A DNA stretch of 46,519 nt from Lachnospiraceae bacterium (lineage in GTDB: Bacteria; Bacillota; Clostridia; Lachnospirales; Lachnospiraceae). Both the position numbers and the translations under genes were made by a program. The stretch is taken from NCBI GenBank assembly GCA_017938485.1, contig JAGBBM010000062.1, forward strand, positions 1 to 46,519, in the 5' to 3' direction. Shown in pieces: positions 14,789 through 30,436 of this stretch (its first letter is position 1; each line of letters opens with the position of its first letter). The notes beneath the pieces are model-generated. The model worked only from the letters and a program-made list of their open reading frames with translations, was not told the origin of the DNA and did not search any database.

Positions 14789-14805
14789 AAAGGATAGTGA
14801 AAAAA

Positions 14806-15630
14806 ATGAGTGAAAATTGTACACATAATTGTTCTACCTGTGGTGAAAATTGTAGTAGCAGAAAAGAGGATTCCCTTCTAGAAGCAGGTAACGAGTATTC
14901 TAACATAAAAAAGGTAATAGCTGTTGTAAGTGGCAAGGGAGGTGTAGGAAAATCCCTTGTAACATCCCTACTTGCAGTTCTTTCGCAGAGAAGAGGAAAC
15001 CAAACTGCCATACTTGATGCAGATATCACCGGTCCATCTATACCAAAGACCTTTAATGTGGACAAAAAAGCTATCTCAAATGGTGAGGTTCTTTTTCCGG
15101 CATCAACAAAAACTGGTATAGAGATGATGTCTATAAATTTGCTTCTTGATGATGATACAAAGCCTGTTATATGGAGAGGTCCAGTTATTGCAGGAACAGT
15201 TAAACAGTTTTGGTCAGAGGTGTTCTGGCAGGATGTGGACTTAATGTTTGTGGATTGCCCACCGGGAACTGGTGATGTACCTCTTACAGTATTCCAGTCT
15301 CTTCCTGTAGATGGAATTATTGTGGTAACCTCACCTCAAGATTTGGTTTCCATGATAGTTGGAAAAGCAGTTAGAATGGCTGAGATGATGAATATCCCAA
15401 TACTTGGCATTGTTGAGAATATGTCTTATTTCATCTGCGACAAATGTAGTGAAAAGCATTACATCTATGGTGAAAGCCACATAGAAGAGATTGCCAAGAA
15501 GTACGGCATCCCTTATGTTGCCAAAATCCCAGTGGAAAAAAGTTTAAGAGAGTGCGTTGACGCAGGCTCCATAGAAGACTTTGCCGGCAACTGGCTCGAC
15601 GAAATAATAGAGGTAATAGAGAGGGCATAA
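14806..15630 (+). CDS. Mrp/NBP35-type P-loop ATPase, iron-sulfur carrier
   Basis: 274 aa from ATG 14806 with AGGA upstream; the GTG at 14797 is too close to that site. The N-terminus is Cys-rich (CTHNCSTCGENCSS), as in NBP35. The deviant Walker A SGKGGVGKS, ADITGPSIPK and DCPPGTGDVP are intact, and the CxxC (FICDKC) that bridges an Fe-S cluster between two monomers is present. Such proteins assemble or deliver [4Fe-4S] clusters in the cytoplasm. It lies upstream of the iron-sulfur-rich hydrogenase-MCP gene, but the two are separated by a long palindrome and a promoter. Its last codons lie inside the left arm of that palindrome. Confidence 0.9.
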   Translation: MSENCTHNCSTCGENCSSRKEDSLLEAGNEYSNIKKVIAVVSGKGGVGKSLVTSLLAVLSQRRGNQTAILDADITGPSIPKTFNVDKKAISNGEVLFPASTKTGIEMMSINLLLDDDTKPVIWRGPVIAGTVKQFWSEVFWQDVDLMFVDCPPGTGDVPLTVFQSLPVDGIIVVTSPQDLVSMIVGKAVRMAEMMNIPILGIVENMSYFICDKCSEKHYIYGESHIEEIAKKYGIPYVAKIPVEKSLRECVDAGSIEDFAGNWLDEIIEVIERA

Positions 15631-16112
15631 CCCCTCCATAAAACAAGCCCACCCCATATGAAGGGTTAAGGAGATTTTTTGCAACTTCACGGTTTCAAGT
15701 GTATCTAGAGGCTTAAGCTTTCGATTTTTGATTACGCGCCACTTCCATAAACTCACATGTCTTGGGGAATATATATGGATTTTTGAAGACAATTAGCTTG
15801 TACCAAACATCAAGATTTTATAATTTGCGATGAATGCACTGCGAGAGTGATGTCTGAGTTGCACATAGTGCAACGAGTTTCACGAGAGCAGTGCTAATTA
15901 AACATCGCAAATTTAAAATCTTAGATATTTGCACAAGCGTAGAGTTGCGAAAAAATCCATATATTCCCCAAGACATGTTCAGACAGTATGTCCGTGGCGC
16001 GATTTATCGAAAGCTTTTAAGCCTGAGATACACTAAGAATCCTAGTTGTCAAAAAATTCTCCTTAACCCTTCATATGGGGTGGGCTTGTTTTATGAAGGG
16101 GCTATGCCCCTC
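15621..16112. repeat. 492-bp imperfect palindrome (long inverted repeat) E1
   Basis: This fills the 600-base gene-free interval between the Mrp and hydrogenase-MCP genes. The two ~245-base arms meet at 15866, where GTTGCAC-ATA-GTGCAAC forms the tip. Best blocks: a perfect 38-bp match (15637-15674 with 16058-16095); about 28 bp around TGTCTTGGGGAATATA (near 15757-15785 with 15951-15978); about 20 bp at 15812-15832 with 15903-15922; and ends GAGGGCATA / TATGCCCCTC. Blocks between them have diverged but stay co-linear. RNA from either strand would fold into one giant hairpin. The left arm includes the Mrp stop codon. No transposase or convincing ORF inside; I do not recognise the family. Confidence 0.9.
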
Positions 16113-16141
16113 GTTTAGTCCGTATTTTTTGTGGATAAAGT

Positions 16142-16170
16142 TTGAAAATCTGTGTATGGTATGGTAAAAT
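16142..16170 (+). promoter_or_regulatory. Promoter of the hydrogenase-MCP gene
   Basis: TTGAAA and TAAAAT separated by 17 bases. A short dyad, GAGAAA-T-TTTCTC (16185-16197), follows in the early leader and could be an operator or mRNA hairpin. Confidence 0.5.
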
Positions 16171-16230
16171 GAGATTAGCGCACTGAGAAATTTTCTCAAA
16201 AGAAGAAAGAAACGAACGGGGGTCGATATA

Positions 16231-18153
16231 ATGTCATTAGTTTACACCAATGATAATTGTGTCGGATGCAACAAATGTATTAGCGCATGTAGCTGTATGG
16301 GTGCTAATCTTCATACCAAAGAGGACGGAAAAGTAAAGATTCAGGTAGATGGAGATAAGTGTATAGCTTGTGGCGCTTGCTTTGATGTGTGTAAGCACAA
16401 TGCAAGAGAATTTAATGATGATACAGAAAGATTCTTCAATGATTTGGCAAGGGGAGAGCGTATTTCTATACTTCTTGCACCTGCATTTAAGGCGAATTAT
16501 CCAAGAGAATATGAGCAGGTGTTAGGTGGATTAAAGAGATGCGGTGTCAATAGAATTATCAGTATATCATTTGCAGCAGATATAACCACATGGGGATATC
16601 TCAACTATGTTACAAAGAATAACTTCTATGGCGGTATATCACAGCCATGTCCTGCAGTTGTAGGATATATTGAGAGATATATACCAGAGCTTATACCTAA
16701 GTTATTCCCAGTACAGAGCCCTATGATGTGTGGAGCTATCTATGCGAAAAAGTATATGGGTATAACTGATAAGCTTGCCTTTATCAGCCCATGTATCGCT
16801 AAGAAGATGGAGATAGACGATCCAAACAATGGCGGATACATATCTTACAATGTTACATTTGAACACCTTATGAAATATGTTAGAGCTAACAATGTATATG
16901 GCCCTGCATGCAGTGATGAGATAGAATATGGACTTGGATCTATCTATCCTATGCCAGGTGGACTCAAGGAAAATGTATACTGGTTCCTTGGTGAGAGTGC
17001 AATGATTCGTCAGATGGAAGGCGAGAAGCATATGTATCACTACCTTGAGCAGAATAAAGACCGTATTGCAAGAAGTGCTACACCATACCTTTTTGTAGAT
17101 GCCCTTAACTGTTCATCAGGATGCTTGTATGGTACTGCAACAGAGCCTATCAAGAATGAAACAGAAGAAGTATATTATGAGATGCTTAGGATTCGTGAAG
17201 AGAGCAAGGGTATGAAGAAGAAAGACCCTTGGGCTAAGAATCTTAAACCAGAAGAAAGACTTAAGTGGTTAAATAAGCAATTTGAGAATCTTAAGCTTGA
17301 AGATTTCTTAAGAGCTTATACAGACCGCTCAGCAAATATAAAACATAGTGAGCCTACTAGAAGAGAGTTAGATGACATCTTTAACGATATGCTTAAGGAC
17401 ACAGAGGAAAAACGTCATATTGACTGTTCTTGTTGTGGTTATGAGGGATGTCATGAGATGGCAGTAGCCATCCATAATGGATTTAATGAGAAGGCGAATT
17501 GTATCCATTACATCAAGGATTTAGCTGAGATTGAAAAGCAAGAGATTGCAGATCTTATGGAAGAGTTGAATCAGCAGAAACAGGATATTGCTGAGGCTGT
17601 TGAGAGTATTAATGAAGAGTTTGTAAGCCTCAATGCATCTATTGACCAGATGGAGGCAGGTAATAACTCTAATGCAGAGGAAAGCTCCGGCATATCTGAA
17701 GAGATTCAGGATGTGTCTGCTTTCTGTAACAAACTTGAAGATCAGCTTACTCAGATTAATGTTCTTCTTGAGGAGCTTAGAGAGAACAACCAGAAGGTTG
17801 TAGACATATCTTCTAAGACTAATCTTCTCGCCCTTAATGCATCTATTGAGGCAGCTCGTGCAGGTGAGGCTGGACGTGGATTTGCCGTTGTTGCTAGCGA
17901 GATTAATGAGCTTGCTGGTAGCTCAAGAGAGACTGTTGAGAGCAGTGATGCAGGACAGATTAAGATTGAGAAGGCTATCAATAACATCTTATATGAGGCA
18001 AAGAGCTTACTTGAGGTTGTTGGTAAGGTATCTGAGAGAACTCAGAATCTTGCAGCTGCTACACAGGAGATTGCAGCATCTTCAGTTAACGTGGCAGAGA
18101 TAAGTGACCACATAAAGGACAAGATGGAAACCCTTGTAAATAATATGAACTAA
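16231..18153 (+). CDS. Sensory [FeFe]-hydrogenase-domain / methyl-accepting chemotaxis fusion
   Basis: 640 aa, no transmembrane helix. Two [4Fe-4S] ferredoxin motifs ([22 protein letters not shown]) come first. A hydrogenase large-subunit domain (about 75-330) follows, with H-cluster loops L1 QPCPAVVG (~141), L2 SPCIAKKME (~187) and L3 NCSSGCLYG (~294): all four cluster cysteines and the L2 Lys are present, but the proton-transfer Cys of L1 (TSCCP in catalytic enzymes) is Pro. An extra FeS motif CSCCGYEGC lies near 400. The C-terminal third is an MCP signalling domain with the conserved tip ([20 protein letters not shown]). No HAMP. This resembles putative H2-sensing hydrogenases rather than catalytic ones; a cytoplasmic H2 or redox chemoreceptor acting on CheA is the inferred role. 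GGGGG ribosome binding site. Confidence 0.88.
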
Positions 18154-26823: not shown

Positions 26824-28629
26824 ATGAAATTTGATATAAAAAAGGGTATTAATTACATAAAGGATAAGAACATAAATGATATATGGTCTATGATGAAATA
26901 CAAGATGAGTGGCCCCGGACTTGCTTATAATGGCTGGTATAAAGAAAAACATGAGACGGATGAGGAGGAGCTTGCTAGACAGAGAGAGCATATATTTGGC
27001 TATTCCCCATTAATTAGTATATTGGTTCCAGTATATGTAACTCCAGAATTATTCCTCCGAGGAATGATAGAATCTGTAATAAAACAGACTTATACAAATT
27101 GGGAGCTTATACTAGTTGATGGAAGCAGAAAACCTGAAAATCCGGAAATAAAAGAAGACATATCAGTTTATGATAAGGTTTATAGTCTTGAAACTGAGAG
27201 AATCATTATGCAATATATGGAGACAGAACCTAGGATAAAATATAGACTTATGGAGGATAATTTAGGGGTTTCCGGCAATACCAATATAGCTCTTAGTATG
27301 TCAGAAGGTGAATATATGGCAGTGCTTAAGCATGATGATGTTTTGGCAGAGGATGCTTTATATCATATTGTTATGGCGTTGCAAGAGGATAACTACGAGC
27401 TTATATATGGGGATGAAGATAGAATGTCGGCAGATGGTAATAAGTTTTCTAACCCTATATTTAAACCGGATTACAGCCCTGACTTACTAAATTCCTACAA
27501 CTATATATTCCATTTCCCTGTAGTTAAGATGTCTCTGGCCAGAGCTGTGGGAGGTTTTCACAGTGAATTTGACGGGGCTCAGGATTACGATTTCTTGCTT
27601 AGATGTGTGGAGAATTTAACTGGAAGAATAAAACATATACCACGGATATTATACCATTGGCGTAAAAATAATAATTCCAAGGAAGGTAAGCACGCAAAGG
27701 AATATGTGCAAGATATTGGAAAAAGGGCTTTGGTTGAGCATGTGAAACGCTTAGGACTATATGGAACAGTAGGGGATACGGATATACCTAGTGCCTATAA
27801 AATAGTGTATGAAACACCAGGAAATCCTCTGCTTTCTATTGTTATATCATCGGTTTCTACTACAGAGCATATAAAAAAGCTCATTTCCTCTTTCTTTGAC
27901 GGAGTGAGATATAGCAATTTCGAGATAATTGTTGTAGAAAATAATGTGGAGGATGGAAGTAGACTCAATTATTATACAAAGATGGAGTCTATTCGAAGTA
28001 ATCTTCATGTCTACATAGATGAAGATATTAAGACTTCTGCGGAGATGAGAAGATACGGCGCATCTTTTGCAAAAGGAAATTATCTTTTGTTTTTGGATAG
28101 CAATATGGCCATAAGAAATACATCTTCCCTAGGTTATATGCTTGGGGCGTGTATGCGAGAGGATGTGGGTATTGTAACGGGAACCCTTTACGGAGAAAAT
28201 GAAACCATATATGAAAAAGGCCGTGTTTTAGGCATTAATGGATTGTATTCTCCTCTACATAAGGGTCTTAAGGAAAATGACTGGTCCTATATGTGGCTAA
28301 ACAAAGTAAGTACAAATCACTGCATTGTTAGTCCTTCATGTATGATGGTTAAAAAATCTGTTTTTGATTCTGTGGGAGGTATATCTGACAAATTCAAGAC
28401 GGACATAGGAATTATGGATTTTTGCCTTAAAGTCAATGAACTTAAGTTCAATACAGTCTGTTTGGCTGATGCTGTGTGGACCTACAAAGCATATGAACCT
28501 GTGGTGGACAAAGGTGAGCTTGCAAAAGACAAGGACCTTTTCTCCATCCTCTGGGGCAACCTATTAACTCAAGGAGACCCCTACTACAATAAAAACTTTA
28601 CCCAGGAAGGCGATTTATTCGATATATAA
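26824..28629 (+). CDS. Glycosyltransferase with two GT2-like domains
   Basis: 601 aa. The ATG at 26824 follows GGAAAGGGGG by 11 bases; the open frame starts at 26794 but without a site. The first GT-A domain (about 45-310) has ISILVPVYVTPELFLRGMIE and KHDDVLAEDALY (metal-binding Asp pair), then YDFLLRCVEN and LYHWRKNNNS. The second, more diverged domain (from ~335) starts PLLSIVISSVSTTEHIK and may be inactive or act on another acceptor. Such tandem GT2 proteins build cell-surface polysaccharides. It stands alone, with no capsule cluster around it. The stop codon (GAT ATA TAA) lies in the left arm of palindrome E2. Confidence 0.87.
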   Translation: MKFDIKKGINYIKDKNINDIWSMMKYKMSGPGLAYNGWYKEKHETDEEELARQREHIFGYSPLISILVPVYVTPELFLRGMIESVIKQTYTNWELILVDGSRKPENPEIKEDISVYDKVYSLETERIIMQYMETEPRIKYRLMEDNLGVSGNTNIALSMSEGEYMAVLKHDDVLAEDALYHIVMALQEDNYELIYGDEDRMSADGNKFSNPIFKPDYSPDLLNSYNYIFHFPVVKMSLARAVGGFHSEFDGAQDYDFLLRCVENLTGRIKHIPRILYHWRKNNNSKEGKHAKEYVQDIGKRALVEHVKRLGLYGTVGDTDIPSAYKIVYETPGNPLLSIVISSVSTTEHIKKLISSFFDGVRYSNFEIIVVENNVEDGSRLNYYTKMESIRSNLHVYIDEDIKTSAEMRRYGASFAKGNYLLFLDSNMAIRNTSSLGYMLGACMREDVGIVTGTLYGENETIYEKGRVLGINGLYSPLHKGLKENDWSYMWLNKVSTNHCIVSPSCMMVKKSVFDSVGGISDKFKTDIGIMDFCLKVNELKFNTVCLADAVWTYKAYEPVVDKGELAKDKDLFSILWGNLLTQGDPYYNKNFTQEGDLFDI

Positions 28630-29005
28630 ACGAAAAATCCCCGCCCACCCCTGCTATAAATATATATGTTGTGCAAACTCGCTCTCGCTCTTTCCTCACG
28701 CAGGGGTACTAAGGCTCTTCCCCGGGATATAGATGGAAATATATAGGCATAAGAAAACCGTTTGAACACGCGGGCACTTAGCTAAAAAAGATAGGATGTA
28801 GATATCGATTTAAATCGAAGAATCTACATCCTATCTTTTTTGCTTAGTACCCTTGCGTAGTGAGACGAGCGAAAGCGTGTTTTCGATATGCCTATATATT
28901 TCCATCTATATCCCTGGGGAGAGCCTAAGGACCCGCGTTCGCAAACGGTTTGCTAACATATATATTTATAGCAAGGGCAGGCGGGGAGTTTTTCGTTTAT
29001 ATATC
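28621..29005. repeat. 385-bp imperfect palindrome (long inverted repeat) E2
   Basis: This fills the 367-base gap between converging genes and runs into both. GATATATAAACGA (28621-28633) is matched exactly inverted at 28993-29005. Further paired blocks are GCTATAAATATATATGTT, GATATAGATGGAAATATATA and the core AAAAAAGATAGGATGTAGAT (28784-28803 with 28822-28841) around TCGATTTAAATCGA. Other arm segments are matched only loosely, and two (GCAGGGGTACTAAG-like and CGCGGGCACTTAG-like) appear to have swapped order between arms. Both flanking genes take their final codons and stop from the repeat. It resembles E1 in size, placement and G+C-rich outer ends (both contain GCCCACCCC). Family not recognised. 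Confidence 0.9.
28784..28841. terminator. Core hairpin of E2, likely bidirectional terminator
   Basis: A 20-bp perfect stem with A6 on one side and T6 on the other, so transcripts from either side meet a strong hairpin plus U-tract between the converging glycosyltransferase and ATPase genes. Confidence 0.7.
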
Positions 29006-30436
29006 CTCCTCTAAGTCGGACTTGGTTAAAGTTTTTATCTGCTTGTCAGTAGGGTTTTCTATGCCTACAATACGGCTTGCCTGACGGGAGATGGTTCTTT
29101 CCATATAGTTTCGGACTTCTCGTGCGTTGGCAAAGTTTTCTAAGTGCATGTCTACAAGGTTGTTGAAATATTCTTTAACGTATTTCTTGCCCGGTTCATT
29201 TGGGATGTAATCCTGCTTTTTACACATGGACATAAATATATTGTAGAGCTGCTCGCCGGTATAGTCCTTGAAGAAAATGTACTTGTTGAAGCGGGACTTA
29301 AGACCAGGGTTGGAGTTTACAAACTCTTCCATAAGGTCTGTGTATCCTGCCACAATAACGATGAGGTTGTCTCTGTTATCTTCCATAAGTTTGAGAAGGG
29401 TATCTACAGCTTCTTGTCCAAAGTCTTTGCCATCTTTTCCTGCAGTTAATGTGTATGCCTCATCGATAAAGAGAACACCACCAAGAGCACTTTCAACAAC
29501 TTCCTTAGTCTTTATAGCGGTTTGACCTACATAACCCTCTACGAGATTAGAACGGTCAACCTCTACCAAATGGCCTTCTGGTAAAACAGTGAGACACTTG
29601 TAAATTTTAGAAAGAAGTCTAGCGACAGTGGTTTTTCCTGTTCCCGGATTGCCGGAAAAAACCATGTGAAGGGTCATAGTTGGTTGCTTCATGCCTCTTT
29701 CTTCACGGAGTTTCTTAACTTTGAGGAGATTAATAAGACTCTTAATATCCTTCTTTACTTCCTCAAGGCCAACTAGTTCGTTTAATTCTGCCATAACCTC
29801 TTCTAAAGTAATATCTTCCTCTGCCACCTCATTTTTATTGAGATTGCCCTTCATACCTTCAAGGGTTGATTTTGTATTGTTTTTTGATTTGGCAGATGGC
29901 TTTGGTGCGTTGCTTGAAGCCTTGATAGGACCACTGCCTGGCTCGTAAAGATTGTATTTGCGAATATATTCTTCAATCATAAATGTGTAGTCAGTAAGAC
30001 GTTTTAATTCCTCCTCAGTCACATCGCTATTGACGGATATGAATTCCTGACCTAATTGCTCGTACAGATTGAGAAGGTTTCTAGATTTAGAGAAGCCCTT
30101 TGTTGTATAAGCAGATTTGCCGGATAAGTCTGCTTCCGCAAAATAGGTAAATGAACGAGGTACCTCGGTGGAAAATTTATCATTTAACACTCTGTCAGAA
30201 CGGAATCTGAGAAGTCGTTCTGCAGTGAAATATTCTCCAAGATACTGATGGAAGAAATTAATCTCCGGATAAAGATTAGTGTTAGATGAATCAAGAAGAT
30301 ATGCAAGAAACTGCAACAAGTCAAACTTAATCATCTCTCTCATAGTGATATCAGTTTTAGGTCCAAATCCCTGATGAGAGATAATTTCTCCATACATATA
30401 ACAATCGTTTAATTCTTGTTTAAGATTATTAATCAT
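28997..30436 (-). CDS. CbxX/CfqX-type AAA+ ATPase
   Basis: 479 aa; AAGGAAGG ribosome binding site. Residues 1-190 are a helical region without a recognised domain, followed by a Ser/Asn/Lys-rich linker. The ATPase core has LNELVGLEEVKKDIKSLINL, Walker A FSGNPGTGKTT, VGQTAIKTKEVVESALGG, Walker B VLFIDEAYTL, sensor-1-type VIVAGY and the sensor-2 region NAREVRNYMERTISRQASR. This is the family of CbbX, SpoVK and EccA, hexameric remodelling motors. No partner (Rubisco, type VII secretion) is encoded nearby, so the substrate is unknown. The last codons and stop come from palindrome E2. Confidence 0.88.
   Translation of the reverse strand: MINNLKQELNDCYMYGEIISHQGFGPKTDITMREMIKFDLLQFLAYLLDSSNTNLYPEINFFHQYLGEYFTAERLLRFRSDRVLNDKFSTEVPRSFTYFAEADLSGKSAYTTKGFSKSRNLLNLYEQLGQEFISVNSDVTEEELKRLTDYTFMIEEYIRKYNLYEPGSGPIKASSNAPKPSAKSKNNTKSTLEGMKGNLNKNEVAEEDITLEEVMAELNELVGLEEVKKDIKSLINLLKVKKLREERGMKQPTMTLHMVFSGNPGTGKTTVARLLSKIYKCLTVLPEGHLVEVDRSNLVEGYVGQTAIKTKEVVESALGGVLFIDEAYTLTAGKDGKDFGQEAVDTLLKLMEDNRDNLIVIVAGYTDLMEEFVNSNPGLKSRFNKYIFFKDYTGEQLYNIFMSMCKKQDYIPNEPGKKYVKEYFNNLVDMHLENFANAREVRNYMERTISRQASRIVGIENPTDKQIKTLTKSDLEEDI

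What the first reader, a model, noticed from the sequence alone, without database searches (positions are those of the whole stretch)
15621..16112. Giant 492-bp imperfect palindrome between mrp-like and hydrogenase-MCP genes
Seen: two ~245-base arms pair along almost their whole length, with a perfect 38-bp outer block, further conserved blocks inside and a tight GTTGCAC-ATA-GTGCAAC tip. It has no transposase and no convincing ORF. It is far larger than a terminator or a REP/ERIC element. Co-linear arms with blocks of perfect identity separated by diverged blocks suggest selection on pairing or repeated gene conversion between arms. It could be a structured non-coding RNA, a MITE-like element, or a recombination/replication-sensitive site.
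Basis: seen in the sequence. Interest (0 to 1): 0.75.

Follow-up and report, generated by a model that had tools for sequence, protein, structure and literature searches.

The report
Repeated giant palindrome with copy-specific arms
The giant palindrome is one of about a dozen copies of a hairpin-shaped repeat scattered between the genes of this bacterium, and its outer arms differ from copy to copy although the two arms of each copy still match each other, which is an unusual way for a repeat to evolve.

Summary
The palindrome is real (RNA fold z about -26) but not unique: its 373-bp core (15678-16050) recurs at 12 places in the genome. Relatives were found in 6 of 36 other genomes of the genus and 0 of 24 outside it. 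Of 10 full-length copies, 6 lie between convergent and 4 between tandem genes. Three relatives have the mrp-hydrogenase pair adjacent without it. Pairing looks selected: 40 of 126 core pairs carry two-sided changes, above all 500 shuffles. I read it as a non-autonomous, MITE-like dispersed hairpin repeat; no shared terminal repeat, target duplication or transposase was shown.

The surprise: five copies with 95.5-97.1% identical cores have outer arms at chance identity to each other, yet each copy's own arms match. Other palindromic families of the genus, one being Rfam's TwoAYGGAY, behave alike. At four homologous sites in close relatives both arms of the resident element differ. How arms are renewed is unproven. 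New variant of a known kind.

The parts
15678..16050 (+). Repeated core of the palindromic element (373 bp), itself an imperfect hairpin
   Evidence: 12 places in the own genome; sharp edge of similarity between copies
15621..15677 (.). Left outer arm, specific to this copy; overlaps the last codons and stop of mrp
   Evidence: Inverted repeat with the right arm; no match elsewhere in the genome at E <= 0.001 when searched with the whole element
16051..16112 (.). Right outer arm, specific to this copy
   Evidence: Mirrors the left arm at 95% over 58 nt
15858..15874 (.). Tip hairpin GTTGCAC-ATA-GTGCAAC; in other copies TCCCAC/GTGGGA with pairing kept
   Evidence: Sequence; alignment and pair counts
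15755..15784 (.). Left side of a variable inner stem, different in sequence between subfamilies but paired in most copies
   Evidence: helices 7-9
15951..15978 (.). Right side of the variable inner stem
   Evidence: helices 7-9
14797..15630 (+). Upstream gene, mrp/NUBPL-type P-loop NTPase
   Evidence: PF10609, 285.8 bits
16231..18153 (+). Downstream gene, Fe-hydrogenase with MCP signalling domain
   Evidence: PF02906 and PF00015
28589..29038 (.). Second giant palindrome, another repeated family with copy-specific matched arms, between convergent genes

Best explanation
It is one copy of a non-autonomous, MITE-like dispersed hairpin repeat that sits at gene ends. Shown: 12 dispersed places, a conserved core, abundant pair-preserving two-sided changes in the core, outer arms that are specific to each copy but match within it, and absence at this junction in three relatives. 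Inferred: it spread as selfish DNA, by an enzyme in trans or by host recombination, and is tolerated at 3' ends near terminators, where read-through transcripts from either side would fold into a long near-duplex. Core and outer arms have separate histories. I think the cores of resident copies are homogenised by ectopic gene conversion, which stops where homology stops, at the arm edge; and that arms are renewed as a pair, because a change in one arm is copied into the other by template switching in the hairpin, or because a resident element is replaced at its site by another one.
For: Repeat nature. Pairing kept: 94 two-sided cells against 26.6 +/- 4.3 shuffled, 0 of 500, at most 24 when partners are slid; paired columns slower than unpaired. 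Decoupling of core and arms: five copies 95.5-97.1% in the core, arms 0.39-0.55 against shuffled 0.49 +/- 0.05. Conversion: copy C36 has a subfamily-1 core but arms resembling C88 and C59a (0.61-0.68); C88, C59a and C59b agree with subfamily 1 at 0.89-1.00 over the centre but 0.56-0.91 outside it. Place: 6 of 10 copies between convergent genes; 14 of 20 sides with an inward-facing terminator-like hairpin against 22 of 546 background windows, by a criterion of my own and a background that is not limited to gene ends. Renewal in relatives: four GCAG sites with different arms, one with core kept and arms changed, one one-base indel mirrored in both arms.
Against: No autonomous partner, shared terminal repeat or target duplication was found; only the Y1 transposase family was searched, with none in the window's genome, which is 87.6% complete. 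No orthologous copy of the window family was available, so arm renewal is seen only in other families of the genus. Most one-base changes between orthologous GCAG arms are not mirrored (20 one-sided, 3 two-sided Watson-Crick changes in stem pairs), and of four loci with indels near the core only one is mirrored; continuous arm-to-arm correction is therefore not supported, only occasional events.
Confidence: 0.55

Rival explanations
1. A functional structured RNA element: the hairpin is kept because, once transcribed, it sets transcript ends or stability (terminator or double-strand RNase substrate); dispersal is secondary.
For: Strong two-sided changes; position at gene ends beside terminator-like hairpins; in the related families orientation follows transcription (TWO (+,+) 23 and (-,-) 2 of 34; GCAG 15 and 3 of 41, the rest mixed or undetermined) and G-U exceeds A-C (TWO arms 79 against 32, control stretch 59 against 46; GCAG stem 1 23 against 7 but stem 2 12 against 15).
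Against: In the window family G-U is not clearly favoured over A-C; the element is absent at the same junction in three relatives; no Rfam match up to E = 1.
Confidence: 0.22
2. The core inserts into palindromes or hairpins that were already there, or insertion copies the flank in inverted form; the outer arms are host DNA.
For: The right arm repeats, inverted, the end of the mrp gene. At sites B and J in G035 and G006 the outermost 10-14 nt of one arm are also in the unoccupied sister site. At site F a palindromic insert sits in the loop of a smaller hairpin.
Against: Most of the arm is absent from the unoccupied sites; at sites I and K a third genome is occupied with the same arms, so the unoccupied state there looks like a deletion. 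Apart from the two giant palindromes no inverted pair longer than 28 nt with at most 60 nt between was found in the window. GCAG arms have a fixed layout with an unpaired stretch at 27-43 nt, which copying of a whole flank would not give.
Confidence: 0.13
3. A recombination- or replication-related site, kept as a DNA cruciform.
For: In the window family G-U and A-C are about equally frequent by pair column, which fits pairing at the DNA level.
Against: 12 dispersed places, variable arms, absence in relatives.
Confidence: 0.03

Closest known systems
Small interspersed repeats and MITEs of bacteria, such as BOX, RUP and SPRITE of Streptococcus pneumoniae (PMC3049150, passages read) and Correia elements of Neisseria (PMC2649163, abstract read)
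   Same: Non-coding, multi-copy, foldable, intergenic; pneumococcal repeats are over-represented between convergent genes; elements are found near or in one another
   Different: Those families are described with terminal inverted repeats or a conserved core with inverted repeats; here the conserved part is central and the outer arms are specific to each copy while matching within it
TwoAYGGAY RNA, Rfam RF01731 (PMC2864571, one table passage read)
   Same: Occurs in 20 of 37 genomes of the genus, up to 35 matches in one, as the centre of palindromes with copy-specific matched arms
   Different: The window element has no match to it or to any Rfam family at E <= 1; different core sequence; the window's genome has one TwoAYGGAY match elsewhere
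REP/REPIN elements with Y1 (RAYT) transposases (PMC2817692, search listing only; layout recalled)
   Same: Palindromic, dispersed, intergenic
   Different: Far larger; no Y1 transposase match in the window's genome
Hairpin stems maintained by template-switch mutation (PMC8794818, abstract and opening paragraphs read)
   Same: Both arms of a stem change together
   Different: That work treats RNA genes; a dispersed repeat whose arms are exchanged as pairs is not in what I read of it

Membership tests
MITE | Short, non-coding, present in many dispersed copies | tested here: met
   12 places, intergenic
MITE | Conserved terminal inverted repeats shared by copies | tested here: not met
   Outer arms at chance identity between close copies; conserved ends exist only in the G001/G015/G029 form. 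Not filed as a MITE
MITE | Target-site duplication | tested here: inconclusive
   No empty site close enough for the window family; three relatives lack it but are too diverged
MITE | Related transposase able to act in trans | tested here: inconclusive
   Only Y1 transposases searched, none in the own genome; no copy with a gene between core halves among the matches seen
TwoAYGGAY RNA (RF01731) | Match to the covariance model | tested here: not met
   No Rfam match for 15500-16250 up to E = 1
REP/REPIN | Accompanying Y1 (RAYT) transposase | tested here: not met
   No PF01797 match in G000; two fragments at contig starts in G035 only, of six genomes
Structured RNA | Conserved secondary structure with pair-preserving changes | tested here: met
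   40 of 126 pairs, 0 of 500 shuffles
Structured RNA | Transcribed and active as RNA | not testable with these tools
   No RNA-seq at hand

The most novel reading that the evidence does not exclude
A class of dispersed hairpin elements in which both arms are rewritten together, in place, while the core and the flanking genome stay, so that the repeat renews its stems in pairs by fold-back copying rather than by ordinary compensatory mutation; the window repeat, its neighbour at 28589-29038 and the genus's TwoAYGGAY elements would be members.
Probability: 0.3. Interest if true: 0.8.

Novelty: new variant of a known kind. Interest (0 to 1): 0.6.

Why it matters
Long matched stems whose sequence is exchanged while pairing stays bear on the open question of how paired changes arise in hairpins: two slow steps under selection, or one copying event. 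Here many copies can be compared within three closely related genomes. It also shows that TwoAYGGAY, listed as a candidate RNA without known function in the passage I read, is in this genus the centre of dispersed palindromes whose pairing reaches about 54 nt beyond the core I used and whose sites are shared with another palindromic family.

Tried and rejected
Neutral arms: a first count on minimum-energy pairs suggested that GCAG arms drift like unpaired flank (192 of 2809 against 118 of 1791 sites). Splitting by region corrected this: stem 1 11/493, core 39/1205, unpaired stretch 35/442, stem 2 18/259, outside 99/1171 (13 independent comparisons; with all 23 comparisons stem 1 is 33/871).

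Inverted duplication at insertion: favoured for a while; speak against it as the whole answer.

Arms carried along from a donor copy: not seen in the sample. Arm identity over 60 GCAG copies (1770 pairs) and 39 TWO copies (741 pairs): pairs classed as paralogous reach at most 0.68 and 0.73; of pairs with similar flanks, 20 GCAG pairs give 0.83-0.98 and one 0.57, TWO pairs 0.97, 0.95, 0.95 and 0.78. The wider set adds same-site pairs near 0.77. Not all copies of the three genomes were sampled, so an unsampled donor is not excluded; searching with one element and its arms found no other copy of those arms apart from its own site (its best other matches cover mostly the core).

Rfam: nothing for the window element; matches to the second palindrome are below the families' cut-offs and taken as chance. 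Viral contigs: 0 exact matches to the two patterns tried. Wider spread: of 250 genomes of the family, one per genus apart from one other of the own genus, two gave 40-bit matches (only the top two candidates per genome were scored), taken as chance. The genome collection gave 0 for the window-core pattern, but it may leave out near records.

Rows dropped: 9 GCAG matches without recognisable ends or too near a locus edge, 5 of 46 copies (orthologous duplicates or odd core length). TWO statistics use the 39 full-length copies present in fetched loci (34 distinct by arms), whereas one search reported 26, 39 and 49 matches in the three genomes. In one search, 76 entries include three loci counted on both strands. 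Of the four arm-swapped sites, two have strong similarity on both flanks, two mainly on the right flank (left scores 26-58).

Paper searches; among the titles and abstract starts listed I saw none on copy-specific matched arms of a repeat. Most subscription journals are not held.

Full report
What is there. The palindrome at 15621-16112 is real and far beyond chance. It lies between the mrp/NUBPL gene, whose stop codon it overlaps on the left, and an Fe-hydrogenase/MCP gene. In G003, G013 and G019 the two genes are neighbours with roughly 50-150 nt between them and no palindrome, so it was gained here or lost there.

It is a repeat. The 373-bp core recurs at 12 places in the genome (87.6% complete): five copies 95.5-97.1% identical to one another (subfamily 1), five more 85-93% identical to one another (subfamily 2), one split by about 85 bp near the tip, one internally deleted. 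Among 61 genomes searched, 7 have it, own included, all within the 37 of the genus; in G001, G015, G029 and G031 only part of the core matches, at 41-51 bits. In G001, G015 and G029 this centre sits in a palindrome of roughly 530-610 bp whose ends are shared by many copies.

Structure. Twelve aligned cores (10 own, 2 of G005) give one long hairpin. 40 of 126 pairs show two-sided changes, 94 such cells against 26.6 +/- 4.3 in shuffles, none of 500 reaching it, and at most 24 when partners are slid. Conserved blocks alternate with stems that differ in sequence between copies but pair in most of them. Paired columns evolve more slowly than unpaired ones within subfamily 1 (48/2512 against 70/1227). 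Between the subfamilies mirrored changes outnumber one-sided ones, 271 to 116, summed over 25 copy pairs that share ancestry.

The odd point. At the core edge similarity between copies stops, but pairing within each copy goes on for about 55-75 nt. The five closest copies have arms at chance identity to one another. The second palindrome of the window (28589-29038) is also a repeat, with 11 other places matched over 246 bp or more, a further match of 160 bp and shorter pieces. In four copies compared, cores are 84-94% alike, 50-nt arms 35-56% alike between copies, and the arms pair within each copy, one of them at 58 of 60 positions.

The genus as a test bed. They carry two further families: GCAG (core about 95 nt) and TWO, which matches Rfam TwoAYGGAY at 25, 35 and 27 places in G006, G035 and G026 (20 of 37 genomes of the genus, 0 of 14 controls). 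In 41 distinct GCAG copies the two arms agree at about 0.92 over nucleotides 8-26 from the core, 0.57 over 27-43 and 0.79 over 44-53; between copies the figure is about 0.6. In 34 distinct TWO copies pairing runs about 54 nt beyond the core, with G-U 79 against A-C 32 there and 59 against 46 in a control stretch further out. In the window family no such bias is clear: 14 against 11 pair columns, 10 against 18 in arms, but 42 against 19 core cells summed over the ten copies.

Turnover at fixed sites. Comparing 76 GCAG entries with 39 TWO copies, nine site pairs hold GCAG in one genome and TWO in another. At four sites two or three genomes hold a GCAG element with different arms. At one, G006 and G026 share arms and G035 differs. 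At another, G026 and G035 share arms but not the core (0.74, partly through length), while G026 and G006 share the core (0.96) but not the arms; between G026 and G035 a one-base indel there is mirrored in both arms. At the other GCAG sites seen in two or more genomes the arms are kept, at about 0.8 to 1.0. Between orthologous copies one-sided stem changes outnumber two-sided ones, 20 to 3, so renewal is occasional, not continuous.

Reading. I take the window element for a MITE-like hairpin repeat; as shared terminal repeats were tested and not met, I do not file it as a MITE. Conversion of cores between resident copies explains the sharp edge and the mosaics. Renewal of arms in pairs is observed in relatives, but its mechanism (fold-back template switching, or replacement by an unsampled element) is inference, and for the window family it is by analogy.

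Place. By ORF and tRNA context 6 of 10 full-length copies lie between convergent genes (one between tRNA-Arg and tRNA-Gln), 4 between tandem genes, none between divergent ones. 14 of 20 sides have an inward-facing terminator-like hairpin ending 38-71 nt from the core; this copy has none by that criterion. Over-representation between convergent genes is also reported for pneumococcal repeats (PMC3049150, passages read).

Noticed in passing
window 28589-29038: Second giant palindrome, between convergent genes whose ends it overlaps; a repeat with 11 other long matches and shorter pieces in the genome, again with copy-specific matched arms.
   Followed up: partly
G001, G015, G029 (loci L286-L315): End motif GGGGCTGTCRCAGTAAGGATTTAAGGC occurs 25, 43 and 23 times (up to 3 mismatches), many near contig ends; some 84-96 bp copies look like hairpins made of the two ends only.
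   Followed up: partly
L057, L060 and other RF01731 loci: TwoAYGGAY matches often come as inverted pairs a few hundred bases apart in G019, G031 and G032, for example on both sides in L060.
   Followed up: no
G006 site A and L216: A further hairpin type with shared tip AAAATTGTAACGTGAATTTT and terminator-like stems that differ between two sites.
   Followed up: no
G006 206337-206691 of the joined stretch and L214: At site I the element overlaps the end of the upstream gene, so that its last codons differ between G006 and G035.
   Followed up: no
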